From positions 1 to 64,000 of the forward strand of contig RFGF01000058.1 in the NCBI GenBank assembly GCA_003695915.1: DNA of 64,000 nucleotides, read 5' to 3'. The notes under the pieces were generated by a model. It saw nothing but the letters and a program-made list of their open reading frames with translations. It ran no database searches and had not been told where the DNA came from. Source of the DNA: Nitrospirota bacterium. GTDB lineage: Bacteria; Nitrospirota; Nitrospiria; Nitrospirales; UBA8639. Shown here piece by piece: positions 50,160 to 56,535 of the stretch (the first letter of the stretch is position 1; each line of letters starts with the position of its first letter). Both the position numbers and the translations under genes were made by a program.

Positions 50160-50594
50160 ATGTCCGAGACAAAAACAGCAGCCATGTTCAGCGGGGAAAA
50201 GTCAAACGGCCTCGTGCTCGTCGTAGACGATGAACCAGATGTTCGTAAAGTCGTCCGGATGACCTTGGAGAAAGCCGGGTACGATGTCATCGAAGCCGAA
50301 GACGGCGAAAAGGCCATTGAAGCGATTAAGAAAGACGAAAATCCCTTGTTATTGGACGTCGCCATCATGGATATCCGTATGCCGAAAGTCAACGGGGTAG
50401 AGGCCATCGCCTGGTTCCAACAACAGTTTCCTCGGGTTCCTATCATCGTGTTGACCGGATTTCCCGATGTGGAAATGGCCACATCCTTTCTGAAACACGG
50501 TGTGGTCGATTATCTCGTCAAACCAGTCGAAGCGGAGAAGCTCAAAGCGGCGGTCGCCAAAGCGATGGAGCAGCGAGAAATTCATCGGTTATAG
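50160..50594 (+). CDS. Response regulator receiver protein
   Basis: A 144-residue CheY-like protein. Asp23-Asp24 and phosphoacceptor Asp71 (VAIMDIRMPKVNG) are present, with the Thr in IIVLTGF and Lys in LVKPVEAEKL. There is no output domain. I start at the ATG at 50160 behind AAGGAGGGTGAGA; the frame upstream is Cys/Ser-rich read-through. It lies 238 bases before two histidine kinase genes on the same strand and is the natural receiver for them. PVE instead of PF after the Lys is a variation seen in some families. Confidence 0.88.
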   Translation: MSETKTAAMFSGEKSNGLVLVVDDEPDVRKVVRMTLEKAGYDVIEAEDGEKAIEAIKKDENPLLLDVAIMDIRMPKVNGVEAIAWFQQQFPRVPIIVLTGFPDVEMATSFLKHGVVDYLVKPVEAEKLKAAVAKAMEQREIHRL

Positions 50595-50675
50595 GTTATA
50601 ATAAATTTTTAGGATCTGAGTGATTCACGACGATTTGTGCATGTTTTCTGACATCGCGCGAGTTTACCCCTTGTT

Positions 50676-50694
50676 CATTTCCTAAGGGGAAATG
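50676..50694 (+). repeat. Hairpin after the receiver gene
   Basis: CATTTCC and GGAAATG form a perfect 7-bp stem around TAAGG, about 80 bases after the stop. No T-run follows. With the next hairpin it may form the end of the receiver transcript or a structured leader of the kinase operon. Confidence 0.4.
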
Positions 50695-50705
50695 CCTTCA
50701 TATGT

Positions 50706-50740
50706 GCGCGGTCTTTGGATCTCCCAGGACCGCGCTTCTT
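50706..50740 (+). terminator. Candidate terminator between receiver and kinase genes
   Basis: GCGCGGTC (50706-50713) pairs perfectly with GACCGCGC (50728-50735) around a 14-base loop and is followed by TTCTT. The stem is strong and the T-run weak. It would cut the receiver gene off from the kinases, which start about 95 bases later. Confidence 0.45.
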
Positions 50741-50832
50741 CAAAACGGCACTGCTGGCCCCGCCGCATCTACGCTTTCCTCTCCCACCCATCTTTGACTG
50801 TAGGTTAACGACAAGGGCACACGGGTCTAGCC

Positions 50833-51864
50833 ATGAATAATCACGCCGCAATACGGTTGGTCATCCTCGGCGGAGGCAAAGGCGGGACAGCGTTGCTCGA
50901 GCTGTTTTCTCATCTTTCCGGTGTCACTGTCGTTGGTCTCGCCGACATCAACCCAGCCGCTCCTGCTGTCTCCTATGCTGAACAATTACATATTCCATTC
51001 TTCTCGGATCCGATTGAAGCGATCAGGCAACCCGGGATCGATCTCATTATCAACGTGACCAATGATCCGGCCCTCGACCACCTCATTCAAGAATATAAAC
51101 ATCCGGAGACCGAGGTGCTCAGTGGAGCAGCGTCTAAATTATTGTGGCAGCTGGTCCAACAAGAAGCCCAAACCCAGGTCCAATTGCTGCAAGCCGAAAA
51201 GCTGGCCAGCATGGGAACCTTTGCTGCCGGCATCGCCCATGATATCAACAACCCTTTGTATGTGATTCAGGGCTTTGCCGAAAACATTCTTGAGGAAACG
51301 AATCTCGATGTCATTCATGAACAAGCCAAGAGCATCTTGGACGCAGCCAAACGCATTCAAGCCATTTGCCTCAATATCACGCAGTATGCCCGAGCCTCTG
51401 TGGCTATCGATGCCACACCGGTGGAATTGCATACCAAAATCGAGGAGGCCTTAAAAATCGCCAGGTACGCCACGACCCTCCAAGACTTGACCATCGTGCG
51501 CAACTACAACGGACCATTGGAAATCATGGCCAAGCCCCAGGAAATTCTGCAAGTCTTCGTCAATCTCCTCACCAACGCCATCCAGGCTATGAACGGACGG
51601 GGTACGCTCACCATCACCACATGGAAAGAGAAGCAATGGGCGAAAGTGGCCATCCGCGATACCGGTTGTGGGATCCCGCCCGAACACCTGGACAAGATCT
51701 TTGAGCCGTTTTTTACCACCAAGCCGCCAGGGATCGGCACGGGGCTGGGTCTTCATAATGTTCGATGGATCGTGAAAAAATATTTTGGACATATCACCGT
51801 CGACAGTCAGGTCGGCAAGGGCACTACGTTTACGCTCGAGTTTCCCCTGATTGGTACGCATTGA
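50833..51864 (+). CDS. Histidine kinase with N-terminal NAD(P)-binding-like domain
   Basis: A 343-residue soluble kinase with no membrane helix. Residues 1-105 look like a Rossmann domain: strand-loop [19 protein letters not shown] (glycine-rich G-x-G-x-x-G-like), VVGLADINP at the end of strand two, and DLIINVTND. The kinase core follows: [12 protein letters not shown] with His136, [32 protein letters not shown] and [19 protein letters not shown] nucleotide-binding fold in the sensor position suggests that NAD(P)H, NAD or another dinucleotide, or cell redox state, tunes the kinase. The Gly pattern is real, but ligand binding is inferred. The next gene starts 11 bases later. Confidence 0.83.
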
Positions 51865-51874
51865 AGTTGTCGGC

Positions 51875-54352
51875 ATGGATCTCACCGTAACAGCGGCAGC
51901 CACACCACGGCGGAGAACAGGGTTAAAGCGCAAGCTCGTTTTGTCCATGTTGCTCGTGGGTGTGTTGCCTTTAGCGATCGGTCTGGTCATGGCTTTTTGG
52001 CAGGGGACCCAAGAAATCCGCCAAGTCAACGGGGCGAGTTTTCAGGCCTTGGCCACCTCCACGGCCAAGCGCATCGATCTGATCATCACGGATGAAATCA
52101 GCCACACCTCCCATCTTGCCACCGACGTTCATCTTATCCAGGAGCTCGAGCGTCGGCGCGATCTCCTCGCTGACATTCCGGCCGAAGAGCTCGCCATTTT
52201 GATCGATCGCGAGCGCCAACGCTGGGAGGCACAAGACCCTTCATTGGTCAAACCATTGACGCAAGGCTCCATCGCCCAGATCCTCCATCGCTATTATGGA
52301 GGCACCTACACCGATCCTGGCCATCCGGTCCCCGTCGTCGCGCGTTCGGCGACACGCGCATTGATCGTGACCGATCTCGCTGGGCGCCTAGTGGCCAGCC
52401 TAGATAGCAATGTGGACTATGTCCATGTCCAAGAAGCCTGGTGGCAGGGCGCTTTTCATAACGGCGTCGGTCAACCCTATCTCGGCCCATTGACGTTCGA
52501 TCCGCGATACCAACGCTACGTCATAGCCATGGCACTGCCCATTATGGATAGCCTTCGGTATCAGGCGATTGGTGTGTTACTGCGTGTGTACGACGCGAAA
52601 GAATTTTTTGCCCCCTCGGTGGATACGATTCGGTTCGGGAAAACCGGGCATGTGATGCTGATCGATAGTCGTGGAGCGGTGCTCAGTTGCCCGATCCTTC
52701 CCACGGGCACCACCCTATCGGATCCCGAACTCATCCGGCTGGTGACCCCGATGCGCAAAGGATGGGTATTGGCTCCCAGCGACGGACACGGGGGGACGGA
52801 TGCGTCCATCATCGGGTATGCGCCCTTGCCCAATGCGAGCCGAATCACCCGAAACTCGTCCGGGGTGACGTTGCACATGTTCGTCTGGCAGTCCTCGGAA
52901 GAACTCTTTGCACCGATCAAACATTTGTTTACATGGATCACGGTCTTCGGGATGCTGTCGGTCGGACTCCTGATCGCCTTGGGGGCAATTGCCGCGACAC
53001 GCATCGTGACCCCGATCAAACGCTTGCAAGAAGCCGCACAGCTCATCGGCCGAGGAGAACTGCAAACGCCGATCTCGCTCACGACCGGCGATGAACTGGA
53101 AGAACTGGCCGAAGAAATGAACCGCATGCATCGGCAACTTTCTGCGGCGTTTGCCGGTCTTGAAAGCCAGGTGGAATTAAAAACCCAGGAAGTCCAATAT
53201 CTGCAGGAATCGACCGCACAAATTTTGGATAGCATCCCCGACCCCATCATCATGCTCGATCAGGAAGGGCGCGTCCAATATGTCAATCGTGCTGGCAAAG
53301 ATGCGTTGGGTGTGGAGACCGATGGGGCTCTCGAGGGACAACCCTTATCGGCTTTGCTTCACACGGACGACAGCACACACCGCAAGCTCCAATACGAACT
53401 CGAAATGCTCACGACAGCCACCGTCGGAAGATCCGGAGTTGCTGGCTCGACAAGCTCGAGCGCGGTTGCATTGCGTGATCCGCTGTCACCCCCTCCCGAT
53501 GTGAGCGTGGGAACCTTGCGGAACGAAATCCATGTCAACCATCGGACCTATCGATACGAGTGGTTTACCGTCAGGGGTCGGGCTGGCCAGCAACCCCGCG
53601 TGGGATTGGTGTTACGCGATATCACCGATGAAAGCCGATTGCAGGAACAGCTCATCCAAGGCGAAAAGTTAGCCAGCCTCGGCGTGCTGAGTGCCGGCAT
53701 CGGACATGAGCTCAACAACCCTCTCGTCGGGGTGATTGGCTTAGGAGAGGCTATTCAAGAGGAAACCGATCCTGAGCAAATCCGTGAGTATGCCAAAACG
53801 ATCGTGCATCATGGGCGCCGGATGGCCTCCATTATTCGAGACTTCACCGGACAAGGCACCGTTCCGGCAACCGAAATGCTTATGTCTGTAGACATCAACG
53901 AGCAACTCCAACATGCCCTGCGCGCCGCCCAACAAGCCAATCCCAGCGAAGGTATTACCGTTCAGACAGATTTTGCCGATCTCCCAGCCATCCGAGCCAA
54001 TCCCATCGAATTAAGCCAAGCATTTATGAACATCATGACCAATGCCCTCCAGGCGATGCAGGGACAAGGCACCCTGGAAATTTCCACTCGACTGCAGGAC
54101 GGAACCATTCGCGTCGTGATTCGCGATACCGGACCCGGTATTCCACGTGCCCATCTTTCTAAAGCGTTCGATCCGTTTTTTACCACCAAGCGACAGGGCG
54201 AAGGCGCGGGACTGGGATTAACCATTGCCCGCCGAATCATCACCAAATATGGTGGACAAATTCACCTCGAGAGCGAAGTGGGTCAAGGCACCACCTGCAC
54301 CATTCTCTTTCCAGCCCCGCCAAAAGCCATTGCGTCACAAGGAGGCACCTAA
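51875..54352 (+). CDS. Large membrane histidine kinase with Cache, HAMP and PAS domains
   Basis: An 825-residue kinase. A first helix at about 23-45 (KLVLSMLLVGVLPLAIGLVM) and a second near 350-372 flank a double-Cache-type sensor. HAMP (370-425) and a coiled stretch follow. A PAS domain (about 455-590, with QILDSIPDPIIMLDQEGRVQ) leads to the H-box in AGIGHELNNPLVGVIG, N-box IMTNALQAMQGQG and GAGLGLTIARRIITKYGG. The H-box type (GHELNNP) is like that of NtrB-like kinases. I start at the ATG at 51875, ten bases after the stop of the preceding kinase. It is followed by a haem protein gene three bases later, so they should act together. Confidence 0.87.
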   Translation: MDLTVTAAATPRRRTGLKRKLVLSMLLVGVLPLAIGLVMAFWQGTQEIRQVNGASFQALATSTAKRIDLIITDEISHTSHLATDVHLIQELERRRDLLADIPAEELAILIDRERQRWEAQDPSLVKPLTQGSIAQILHRYYGGTYTDPGHPVPVVARSATRALIVTDLAGRLVASLDSNVDYVHVQEAWWQGAFHNGVGQPYLGPLTFDPRYQRYVIAMALPIMDSLRYQAIGVLLRVYDAKEFFAPSVDTIRFGKTGHVMLIDSRGAVLSCPILPTGTTLSDPELIRLVTPMRKGWVLAPSDGHGGTDASIIGYAPLPNASRITRNSSGVTLHMFVWQSSEELFAPIKHLFTWITVFGMLSVGLLIALGAIAATRIVTPIKRLQEAAQLIGRGELQTPISLTTGDELEELAEEMNRMHRQLSAAFAGLESQVELKTQEVQYLQESTAQILDSIPDPIIMLDQEGRVQYVNRAGKDALGVETDGALEGQPLSALLHTDDSTHRKLQYELEMLTTATVGRSGVAGSTSSSAVALRDPLSPPPDVSVGTLRNEIHVNHRTYRYEWFTVRGRAGQQPRVGLVLRDITDESRLQEQLIQGEKLASLGVLSAGIGHELNNPLVGVIGLGEAIQEETDPEQIREYAKTIVHHGRRMASIIRDFTGQGTVPATEMLMSVDINEQLQHALRAAQQANPSEGITVQTDFADLPAIRANPIELSQAFMNIMTNALQAMQGQGTLEISTRLQDGTIRVVIRDTGPGIPRAHLSKAFDPFFTTKRQGEGAGLGLTIARRIITKYGGQIHLESEVGQGTTCTILFPAPPKAIASQGGT

Positions 54353-54355
54353 TCC

Positions 54356-54967
54356 ATGCAGATTATCGCCGTGATGACAAGCAAGCGTGGCCTGCTCATC
54401 GGCTGTGCTCTTCTCGTTGTCGGATCCGCACTGATGTTGTCGCAGGGATACAGTAAAACGTCCCAGACTATCCCGCACCTCCATCCCCGTCTGGTGGCCG
54501 ATTACCTGCACGCAGTCATCGAAGCGGATCGCACCGTCTATACTACACATGTGGTGAATCGTCTGCAAAACCAAGGGATCATCATGGCTGCGGAAGATTG
54601 GGAACAGCGCAATGCGTTGCCGCTGCCTGCCCAACTCCTCCAATACGCCGGCCGGCTCGTCGCGGAAAAAGGGCATGGGATTCGATACCGACTGATCAGC
54701 CTCTGGCCCATTTATCGGCGTAATGGCCCAGCGACCGCGTTCGAACGGAATGGCTTGGAAACCGTCATGGCCAATCCCGATGAACCGTTTACAGGAATCG
54801 TGACCAGCGGCAAAAAACGCTTTTTTCAAGCCATCTATGCCGATCGTGCGATTGCCGAAGCCTGTGTGGTCTGCCACAACACGCACCCGCTCAGTCCGAA
54901 GCGCGATTTTGCCTTGAACGATGTCATGGGCGGGATTGTCATCACTATTCCCTTGCCTGACTCATGA
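54356..54967 (+). CDS. Tll0287-like (DUF3365) haem-binding protein
   Basis: A 203-residue protein. One N-terminal hydrophobic segment (LLIGCALLVVGSALMLSQG) exports or anchors it. The DUF3365/Tll0287 domain fills the rest: LHAVIEADRTVYTTHVVNRL, then NPDEPFTGIVTSGKKRFFQA and near the end the c-type haem motif CVVCH (Cys170, Cys173, His174), followed by NTHPLSPKRDFALNDVMGGI. Such haem-PAS-like modules act as gas or redox sensors. Its place three bases after the Cache kinase suggests that it presents signal to that kinase in the periplasm. AGGAGG lies ten bases before the ATG. Confidence 0.87.
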   Translation: MQIIAVMTSKRGLLIGCALLVVGSALMLSQGYSKTSQTIPHLHPRLVADYLHAVIEADRTVYTTHVVNRLQNQGIIMAAEDWEQRNALPLPAQLLQYAGRLVAEKGHGIRYRLISLWPIYRRNGPATAFERNGLETVMANPDEPFTGIVTSGKKRFFQAIYADRAIAEACVVCHNTHPLSPKRDFALNDVMGGIVITIPLPDS

Positions 54968-55044: not shown

Positions 55045-56535
55045 ATGATCTTTCCCTGGACGAAGAAAACCGATGCCCAGACACCCACCGCGGATGACAG
55101 TGCCCCCTTCTCCAATTACCGTATGACGGTACGCGTGGAGTTGGCTCAGCGAACAGGGGTGTTTGCCCAAGTCGCCACCGCGTTGGCTGAAGAAGGTGCC
55201 AGTCTCGGAGCCGTCGATCTCGTCTCCGCCACACGTACCAAGGTCATCCGCGATATTACGTTCGATGCCAAAAGCGAGGAACATGCCAAACGGGTGCTGG
55301 AACGTCTCAATCAACTGCCCGATGTTCGTGTCATCGCCGCGTCGGACCAAATTTTCATTCTCCATCTCGGTGGGAAAATTCGCGTCAGCGGCAAATTCCA
55401 GATTAAAACGCGCAATATCTTGTCCATGGCCTATACCCCGGGCGTGAGCCGCGTCGTGAAGGCCATCGCGGAAGATCCCGCGAAGGCTTACACGTTCACT
55501 TGCAAAGGCAACAGCATCGCGGTGGTGACAGACGGGTCTGCGATTCTCGGATTAGGTGACTTGGGACCTGAGGCTGCGCTTCCAGTCATGGAAGGAAAAG
55601 TCTTGCTGTTTCAGCAATTCGCCGGCATCGATGCCTGGCCCATCTGCCTGCGGGTTCGTCATCCCGACGACATCGTTCATACGATTCTGGCGCTCTCGCC
55701 CGGCTTCGGCGGGATCAACCTCGAAGATATCAGTTCTCCGCGATGCTTCGAAATCGAACGCCGGCTGCAAGCCGCCTTGGACATTCCCGTGATGCACGAC
55801 GATCAACACGGAACGGCAGTGGTCATCCTTGCGGCGTTGACCAATGCCTTAAAGGTCGTTCGGCGACAGCTGGATCAAGTCACCATCGTGGTCATCGGCC
55901 TCGGCGCAGCCGGTACGGCTTGTTGCAAGCTGTTGCTGGCTGCTGGCGTTCAGCACCTGAAGGGGTGCGATCGCAAAGGGTTGGTCATGGATGAGGATGC
56001 CGAGACCCTTCGGAATCATCGTCATGCACTGCACGAATTCATCCGGTACGACGAGCCGAAAGGCACGCTTCGCGAGGCCTTGACGGGCGCTCACGTGGTC
56101 ATCGGACTGTCGACCGGAAACGTCTTGACTCCGGACGACCTCGCCGTGATGGCCCCCGATGCGATTGTGTTCGCCTTAGCCAACCCCGAACCCGAAATCT
56201 CGCCGGAATTGGCGCTCCCGCACTGCCGTATTTATGCCAGCGGTCGATCCGATTATCCCAACCAATGCAACAACCTTCTCGCGTTCCCCGGCCTCTTTCG
56301 CGGCGCACTGGACGTTCAAGCGAAAACCATCAATGAAGCCATGTACCTCGCAGCCGCGCATGCGCTCGCATCCATTATTCCCGAGGCAGCGCTCAGCGAA
56401 GAACATATCGTCCCGAGCGTGTTCGATAAAAAAGTCGTTCCTCAGGTTGCCGAAGCCGTAGCCAAAGCCGCGATCACCAGCGGTGTCGCCAGACGAAAGA
56501 AAAAAGATCTCGAGGAGGAGGTGCCCCCTGCGTGA
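55045..56535 (+). CDS. NAD(P)-dependent malic enzyme with N-terminal ACT domain
   Basis: A 496-residue enzyme that decarboxylates malate to pyruvate. An ACT domain occupies about 25-105 (MTVRVELAQRTGVFAQVATA). The catalytic region shows SMAYTPGVSRVVKAIAEDP, KGNSIAVVTDGSAILGLGDL, VMHDDQHGTAVVILAAL and the NAD loop VVIGLGAAGTACCKLLL. GRSDYPNQCNNLLAFPGLFRG is typical of the short bacterial type. The ACT domain should give amino-acid feedback, possibly by an aspartate- or branched-chain-family product. A basic tail (RRKKKDLEEE) ends it. AGAGG precedes the ATG. Confidence 0.93.
   Translation: MIFPWTKKTDAQTPTADDSAPFSNYRMTVRVELAQRTGVFAQVATALAEEGASLGAVDLVSATRTKVIRDITFDAKSEEHAKRVLERLNQLPDVRVIAASDQIFILHLGGKIRVSGKFQIKTRNILSMAYTPGVSRVVKAIAEDPAKAYTFTCKGNSIAVVTDGSAILGLGDLGPEAALPVMEGKVLLFQQFAGIDAWPICLRVRHPDDIVHTILALSPGFGGINLEDISSPRCFEIERRLQAALDIPVMHDDQHGTAVVILAALTNALKVVRRQLDQVTIVVIGLGAAGTACCKLLLAAGVQHLKGCDRKGLVMDEDAETLRNHRHALHEFIRYDEPKGTLREALTGAHVVIGLSTGNVLTPDDLAVMAPDAIVFALANPEPEISPELALPHCRIYASGRSDYPNQCNNLLAFPGLFRGALDVQAKTINEAMYLAAAHALASIIPEAALSEEHIVPSVFDKKVVPQVAEAVAKAAITSGVARRKKKDLEEEVPPA

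What the first reader, a model, noticed from the sequence alone, without database searches (positions are those of the whole stretch)
50833..54967. Signalling set: kinase with dinucleotide-binding-like domain, Cache kinase and haem protein
Seen: a soluble histidine kinase starts with a Rossmann-like domain (G-rich loop at residues 13-18), followed by a Cache-HAMP-PAS kinase and a CxxCH Tll0287-like protein, with 3-10 base gaps. A lone receiver precedes them. Inference: cytosolic NAD(P) state and an outside haem/redox signal may be integrated on one receiver.
Basis: partly seen in the sequence, partly recalled or inferred. Interest (0 to 1): 0.6.

Follow-up and report, generated by a model that had tools for sequence, protein, structure and literature searches.

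The report
Kinase with cofactor-binding-like sensor domain
A conserved bacterial signalling cassette holds a cytoplasmic kinase whose front end looks like the NAD-binding part of a metabolic enzyme, next to a membrane kinase, a haem protein and one receiver; the same front end also sits, largely unremarked, on gene activators and chemotaxis proteins of quite different bacteria.

Summary
Residues 1-105 of the soluble kinase (50833-51864) model as a classical NAD(P)-type Rossmann domain (pLDDT 87, pTM 0.78). The nearest solved structures are NAD(P) dehydrogenases, not receivers or PAS domains. Profile search also finds the NADH-sensing repressor Rex. The G-x-G-x-x-G loop and the acidic residue ending strand 2 are kept in 74-75 of 76 distinct homologues. 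No catalytic domain follows, so it reads as an input domain.

The set receiver / Rossmann-kinase / Cache-kinase / haem protein is kept in order in 15 of 19 loci examined from related genomes, with differing flanks. The domain also fronts a NarX-type kinase in this genome, GAF-PAS kinases elsewhere in the phylum, sigma-54 activators of Bacillota (including BkdR beside bkd operons) and soluble chemoreceptors. No Pfam family is dedicated to it.

Not shown: ligand identity, and convergence of both kinases on one receiver. The kinase cores are sisters, but their phosphotransfer helices share only 34% identity. A strong hairpin separates receiver from kinase here, although in two relatives the gap is 12-29 bp. 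The haem protein lacks Tll0287's axial cysteine. Verdict: a real new variant of two-component input.

The parts
50160..50594 (+). single-domain response regulator (receiver only, 144 aa)
   Evidence: PF00072 104.7 bits; AAGGAGG shortly before ATG 50160; orthologues mostly 142-144 aa at 64-78% identity
50706..50735 (+). stable hairpin followed by UUCUUC, possible terminator or attenuator between receiver and kinase
   Evidence: -21.4 kcal/mol, z -3.6; comparable hairpins in some but not all relatives
50833..51864 (+). soluble sensor histidine kinase with N-terminal Rossmann domain (RosHK)
   Evidence: HisKA 46.6 bits, HATPase_c 97.2 bits, PF01408 24.5 bits; no TM segment
50833..51147 (+). Rossmann NAD(P)-type input domain, residues 1-105; GxGxxG loop at 50869-50886, acidic strand-2 residue D38 at 50944-50946
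   Evidence: AlphaFold2 pLDDT 87, pTM 0.78; Foldseek top hits NAD(P) dehydrogenases; profile vs PDB: acetaldehyde DH 1e-6, Rex 2.7e-5; conservation
51124..51198 (+). long helix (residues 98-122) leading from the Rossmann domain towards the HisKA helix
   Evidence: secondary structure of the model, H98-122; HisKA begins at residue 127
51211..51396 (+). HisKA domain, phospho-acceptor H136 in GIAHDINNP
   Evidence: PF00512 residues 127-188; H136 in the 95% conserved set
51875..54352 (+). membrane sensor histidine kinase: TM, periplasmic Cache, TM, HAMP, PAS, HisKA, HATPase_c
   Evidence: dCache_1 46.6 bits vs cut-off 45, HAMP 44, PAS 42.2, HisKA 46.8, HATPase_c 96.2; TM segments 21-39 and 355-373
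54356..54967 (+). signal-anchored or secreted c-type haem Cache protein (Tll0287/DUF3365, sCache_heme); CVVCH at 54863-54877
   Evidence: PF11845 61 bits; CxxCH and no other mature-part Cys in 16 of 16 orthologues

Best explanation
A multi-input two-component cassette. The cytoplasmic kinase carries a stripped-down NAD(P)-type Rossmann domain that binds a dinucleotide, most likely NAD(H), as a ligand rather than as a catalytic cofactor. Binding changes the domain and is passed down a continuous helix (residues 98-122) into the phospho-acceptor helix, setting the kinase/phosphatase balance. The neighbouring membrane kinase reads an extracytoplasmic signal through its Cache domain, probably helped by the adjacent periplasmic c-type haem protein (redox state or NO). 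Both kinases act on the single-domain receiver of the cassette. Shown here: fold, conserved dinucleotide fingerprint, absence of a catalytic domain, gene order, sister kinase cores, haem motif. Inferred: ligand identity, helix signalling, haem protein to Cache coupling, shared receiver.
For: N-domain model is a confident Rossmann fold whose best structural neighbours are NAD(P) dehydrogenases. Profile search gives NAD-dependent acetaldehyde dehydrogenase (1e-6) and the NADH sensor Rex (2.7e-5). G13/G15/G18 are kept in 75/75/74 and D or E at 38 in 74 of 76 distinct homologues. The same domain sits on at least five kinds of signalling output, as expected of a sensor module. Cassette order is kept in 15 of 19 loci with different flanks. 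Receiver and RosHK are 12-29 bp apart in two relatives. RosHK and CacheHK cores form one clade with one other kinase among the genome's HisKA kinases. Tll0287-like proteins are c-haem Cache proteins with redox or NO roles (PMC12889525).
Against: No binding data. Rossmann domains of this kind can also bind NADP, CoA or nothing; one relative scores weakly on CoA_binding. The window's own protein has N77 where 74 of 76 homologues have G. DHp helices of the two kinases are only 34% identical, no better than with two other kinases of the genome. A terminator-like hairpin separates receiver and RosHK here. Two family-f2 relatives keep receiver and RosHK without Cache kinase or haem protein, and one relative keeps the two kinases without the others, so the parts are separable.
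Confidence: 0.5

Rival explanations
1. The Rossmann domain senses CoA or an acyl-CoA rather than the NAD redox state, so the kinase reports carbon or acyl-CoA status.
For: Closest solved relatives are acylating, CoA-dependent acetaldehyde dehydrogenases. A BkdR relative hits PF02629 CoA_binding weakly at 19.5 bits against 22.3. Relatives sit beside CoA-thioester metabolism: bkd operons, and fumarate hydratase plus succinyl-CoA ligase.
Against: The acidic residue ending strand 2, a hallmark of NAD ribose binding, is conserved; Rex, an NADH sensor, is also a hit. Neighbouring pathways are equally NAD-linked.
Confidence: 0.2
2. The domain no longer binds a nucleotide and serves as a dimerisation or protein-interaction module, for example reading a metabolic enzyme.
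For: One paralogous copy in G012 has lost the loop (GGGQRTQP, row L071) while the kinase remains.
Against: Near-invariance of exactly the cofactor-contacting positions across two or more phyla and several output types.
Confidence: 0.15
3. The two kinases are separate systems that share a neighbourhood: RosHK pairs with the receiver, and CacheHK with the haem protein signals to a regulator elsewhere.
For: Two relatives keep only receiver plus RosHK, tightly spaced. DHp helices differ between the kinases. A hairpin separates the receiver from the kinases here.
Against: All four genes stay together in 15 of 19 loci with changing flanks, the kinase cores are sisters, and no other regulator is conserved in the cassette.
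Confidence: 0.3
4. The Rossmann domain is a remnant of a dehydrogenase fusion that still acts as an enzyme.
For: Sequence and fold resemble dehydrogenase N-domains.
Against: Only about 105 residues precede HisKA; the catalytic domain present in nearly all the matched enzymes (target lengths mostly around 260-370) is absent, and the same short form recurs on all outputs.
Confidence: 0.02

Closest known systems
Rex redox-sensing repressor (NADH sensor)
   Same: Rossmann domain used as sensor of NADH rather than for catalysis (Rex function from general knowledge); profile match E 2.7e-5 to 5zz5
   Different: Rex is a DNA-binding repressor with a winged-helix domain; here the domain drives a histidine kinase
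Acylating acetaldehyde dehydrogenase N-domain (DmpF/MhpF type) and GFO/IDH/MocA oxidoreductases (PF01408)
   Same: fold, GxGxxG loop and strand-2 acidic residue
   Different: catalytic domain missing; fused to signalling outputs
BkdR, sigma-54 activator of branched-chain keto acid operons in Bacillus
   Same: homologous N-terminal Rossmann domain (L046, L049)
   Different: output is PAS-PAS-AAA-Fis instead of HisKA-HATPase; the two papers read list only the PAS and PAC domains (PMC4428206; PMC3734008)
Tll0287/DUF3365 sCache_heme proteins
   Same: PF11845 and CxxCH
   Different: stand-alone, yet lacks the axial cysteine reported for the stand-alone redox type
AtoS/ZraS-type HisKA sensor kinases
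   Same: best NCBIfam matches of the kinase core
   Different: far below their cut-offs and with a different input domain

Membership tests
NAD(P)-binding Rossmann domains | beta-alpha-beta Rossmann fold | tested here: met
   AlphaFold2 pLDDT 87, Foldseek matches prob 1.00 to NAD(P) dehydrogenases
NAD(P)-binding Rossmann domains | GxGxxG loop | tested here: met
   G13, G15, G18 in 75, 75, 74 of 76 homologues
NAD(P)-binding Rossmann domains | acidic residue at end of strand 2 (NAD preference) | tested here: met
   D38; D or E in 74 of 76
NAD(P)-binding Rossmann domains | binds NAD(H) or NADP(H) | not testable with these tools
   needs ITC, thermal shift or a co-structure
GFO/IDH/MocA oxidoreductases | C-terminal catalytic domain | tested here: not met
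   HisKA follows at residue 127
Rex | N-terminal winged-helix DNA-binding domain | tested here: not met
   no such domain in the 343 aa
HisKA sensor histidine kinase | HisKA with phospho-acceptor His and HATPase_c | tested here: met
   both kinases, above Pfam cut-offs; H136 in GIAHDINNP
HisKA sensor histidine kinase | autophosphorylation and transfer to the receiver | not testable with these tools
   in vitro phosphotransfer needed
Tll0287/DUF3365 (sCache_heme) | PF11845 match and CxxCH | tested here: met
   61 bits vs 24.1; CxxCH in 16 of 16 orthologues
Tll0287/DUF3365 (sCache_heme) | axial cysteine of the stand-alone redox subtype | tested here: not met
   no mature-part Cys beyond CxxCH in 16 of 16; subtype as described in PMC12889525
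BkdR-type enhancer-binding protein | sigma-54 AAA and Fis domains | tested here: not met
   absent from the window's proteins; present in L046 and L049
soluble kinase with PAS or receiver input | N-domain is PAS or receiver | tested here: not met

The most novel reading that the evidence does not exclude
The domain is an unnamed, widespread cytoplasmic input module derived from an NAD-dependent dehydrogenase, which reports NAD(H) state to histidine kinases, sigma-54 activators (BkdR and a regulator beside fumarate hydratase/succinyl-CoA ligase genes in Pelotomaculum) and soluble chemoreceptors alike. In this lineage it is paired with a periplasmic haem sensor so that inner and outer redox signals converge on one receiver.
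Probability: 0.35. Interest if true: 0.75.

Novelty: new variant of a known kind. Interest (0 to 1): 0.52.

Why it matters
Direct sensing of NAD(H) by a histidine kinase would be a simple, general way for bacteria to wire metabolism into two-component signalling. It would also give a testable ligand for BkdR, where the literature read here records only PAS domains. The searches made found no paper that describes this Rossmann domain as a signalling input domain in kinases, activators or chemoreceptors; that library is limited to open-licence papers. Purified 105-residue domains from several proteins could settle it quickly.

Tried and rejected
Receiver or PAS fold for the N-domain: rejected. 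Chance match to the G-rich loop: rejected by conservation over 76 distinct homologues and several outputs. Enzyme fusion: rejected because no catalytic domain follows. Sigma-54 promoter near the cassette: pattern hits in the window no more than chance (27 against 29.9 expected). Sigma-70 promoters and simple terminators: counts near shuffle level. Shared receiver from DHp specificity: identity 34%, not decisive. Plasmid-borne copies of the N-domain: none. An nxr-like reading of the gene beside the C70 haem-protein paralogue was checked and not supported. The invariant ADINPAAP in alignment A1 is partly an artefact, because ADINPAAP was one of the search seeds; in the wider set only D38, A43 and A49 are nearly invariant there.
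Full report
Observation. The window region 50160-54967 holds a receiver, a soluble kinase, a membrane kinase and a Tll0287-like protein on the + strand, as described. Internal gaps are 10 bases (51864 to ATG 51875) and 3 bases (54352 to 54356). The receiver starts at 50160 behind AAGGAGG and is followed by 238 bases that contain a hairpin of -21.4 kcal/mol (z -3.6) with a UUCUUC tail. RosHK has no transmembrane stretch; the Cache kinase has two, at residues 21-39 and 355-373; the haem protein has an N-terminal hydrophobic segment.

The N-terminal domain. Pfam already gives PF01408 (GFO_IDH_MocA, NAD-binding Rossmann) at 24.5 bits, just over its cut-off of 24. AlphaFold2 on the domain with nine distant relatives gives mean pLDDT 87 and pTM 0.78, with strand-helix alternation E7-12, H16-26, E31-37, H44-51, H60-64, E71-74, H79-88, E94-97 and a long C-terminal helix 98-122. 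Foldseek against the PDB returns NAD(P)-dependent dehydrogenases throughout the top of the list: acylating acetaldehyde dehydrogenase, dihydrodiol dehydrogenase with NAD+, myo-inositol dehydrogenase, biliverdin reductase. A profile of 27 members searched against PDB sequences finds acetaldehyde dehydrogenase (1e-6) and the redox-sensing repressor Rex (2.7e-5). In 76 distinct homologues, G13, G15 and G18 are kept in 75, 75 and 74, the strand-2 acidic residue D38 in 74 (72 D, 2 E), and T/S76-G77 in 76 and 74; the window's own copy has N77. Only about 105 residues precede the kinase helices, so the catalytic half of a dehydrogenase is missing.

Spread. In this genome a second protein (C37:78460, L009, 404 aa) has the domain on a NarX-type HisKA_3 kinase next to a NarL-type regulator, and two copies per genome are the rule in the order. 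In the phylum sample, 151 of 246 genomes have the domain, including proteins of about 1150 aa with GAF, PAS and HisKA. Outside it, a genome scan found it on sigma-54 activators of Bacillus massiliglaciei, Planococcus and Pelotomaculum. The Bacillus and Planococcus genes sit before phosphate butyryltransferase, Leu/Trp-dehydrogenase-like, butyrate kinase, lipoamide dehydrogenase and E1-alpha genes, i.e. bkd operons, which with the PAS-PAS-AAA-Fis layout identifies BkdR; the Pelotomaculum gene precedes fumarate hydratase and succinyl-CoA ligase. In the Bacillus order 64 of 81 genomes have it, nearly always in proteins of about 690 aa. In the Pelotomaculum phylum sample 46 of 149 have it, including soluble proteins of about 300 aa that end in an MCP signalling domain. 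Pfam returned no hit over the N-terminal 100 residues of the Planococcus BkdR or the Pelotomaculum activator, and only a sub-threshold CoA_binding hit for the Bacillus one. Two papers read on BkdR list PAS/PAC domains only (PMC4428206; PMC3734008), and full-text searches for BkdR with Rossmann, and for Rossmann chemoreceptors, found none. These negatives are limited to an open-licence library.

The cassette. In 19 loci taken from 18 related genomes, 15 keep receiver, RosHK, Cache kinase and haem protein in that order and orientation (14 by tblastn, one more, with a decayed Rossmann loop, by clustering). One has a fragment of the haem gene, one has only the two kinases, and two have only receiver plus RosHK. 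Flanking genes differ between groups, so the four genes travel as a unit. In the two receiver-RosHK loci the gap is 29 and 12 bases, which points to this receiver as partner of RosHK. In a tree of the HisKA kinase cores of the genome with cassette relatives, RosHK and Cache kinase form one clade together with a kinase at C70:38742, and each gene's subtree broadly parallels the other: a tandem duplication with exchanged input domains is likely. The tree was midpoint-rooted and its support values were not examined. The phospho-acceptor helices are, however, only 34% identical, about equal to the value with two other kinases of the genome (35%), so a shared receiver is inference.

The haem protein. 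PF11845 is well over its cut-off, and CxxCH is kept in 16 of 16 cassette orthologues. A 2026 preprint classes these as c-haem Cache domains: stand-alone ones with Cys/His ligation look redox-type, while a membrane-fused one without the axial Cys binds NO (PMC12889525). The cassette proteins are stand-alone but have no cysteine besides CxxCH in the mature part, an in-between type; either redox or NO sensing is open. The genome has seven PF11845 places.

How it most likely works. Inside: the Rossmann domain binds a dinucleotide, NAD(H) first choice because of D38 and the Rex match, CoA or acyl-CoA second because of the acetaldehyde dehydrogenase match and the bkd and succinyl-CoA neighbourhoods. 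The change passes by the helix 98-122 into the HisKA helix. The sequence HDINN after the phospho-acceptor resembles the E/DxxN/T motif of bifunctional kinase/phosphatases (general knowledge). Outside: the Cache domain reads a ligand or the haem partner. Both signals may meet at the single-domain receiver, whose own output is unknown. Fold, fingerprint, gene order and haem motif are shown; ligand, coupling and convergence are inferred.

Novelty and score. The parts are known kinds; the input domain is a new variant for two-component systems and seems unnamed as a signalling module. The breadth, and the fact that it includes a long-studied regulator, make it worth a direct binding test. Interest 0.52.

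That it belongs to the Nitrospirales (Nitrospirota) is my guess and no argument rests on it.

Noticed in passing
L046:5995-8055, L049:5950-7992 (and 64 of 81 genomes of that order): BkdR-type sigma-54 activators start with the same Rossmann domain; Pfam shows at most a sub-threshold hit there and two papers list only PAS domains.
   Followed up: partly
L116, L117, L118, L120, L121: Soluble chemoreceptor-like proteins of about 300 aa that consist of the Rossmann domain plus an MCP signalling domain.
   Followed up: partly
window 55045-56535: Malic enzyme with an N-terminal ACT domain starts 77 bases after the haem protein; the adjacency (cluster 4) recurs in 5 relatives, so it may share the transcript.
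   Followed up: partly
G000:C37:78460-78762 (L009, L074): Second Rossmann kinase of the genome, of NarX type (HisKA_3), beside a NarL-type regulator.
   Followed up: partly
L071 (G012:C1:2610000-2626000): A second cassette copy in one genome whose Rossmann loop is degenerate (GGGQRTQP) while the kinase and the other genes remain.
   Followed up: no
L146:14986-15666 (G000:C70): Paralogue of the haem protein (64% identity) on the same contig as the kinase closest in the core tree to RosHK and CacheHK (C70:38742), about 9 kb away.
   Followed up: partly
L056:4629-7121, L057, L058, L060: In some relatives a receiver-PAS-GAF-HATPase protein of 830-880 aa precedes the cassette receiver.
   Followed up: partly
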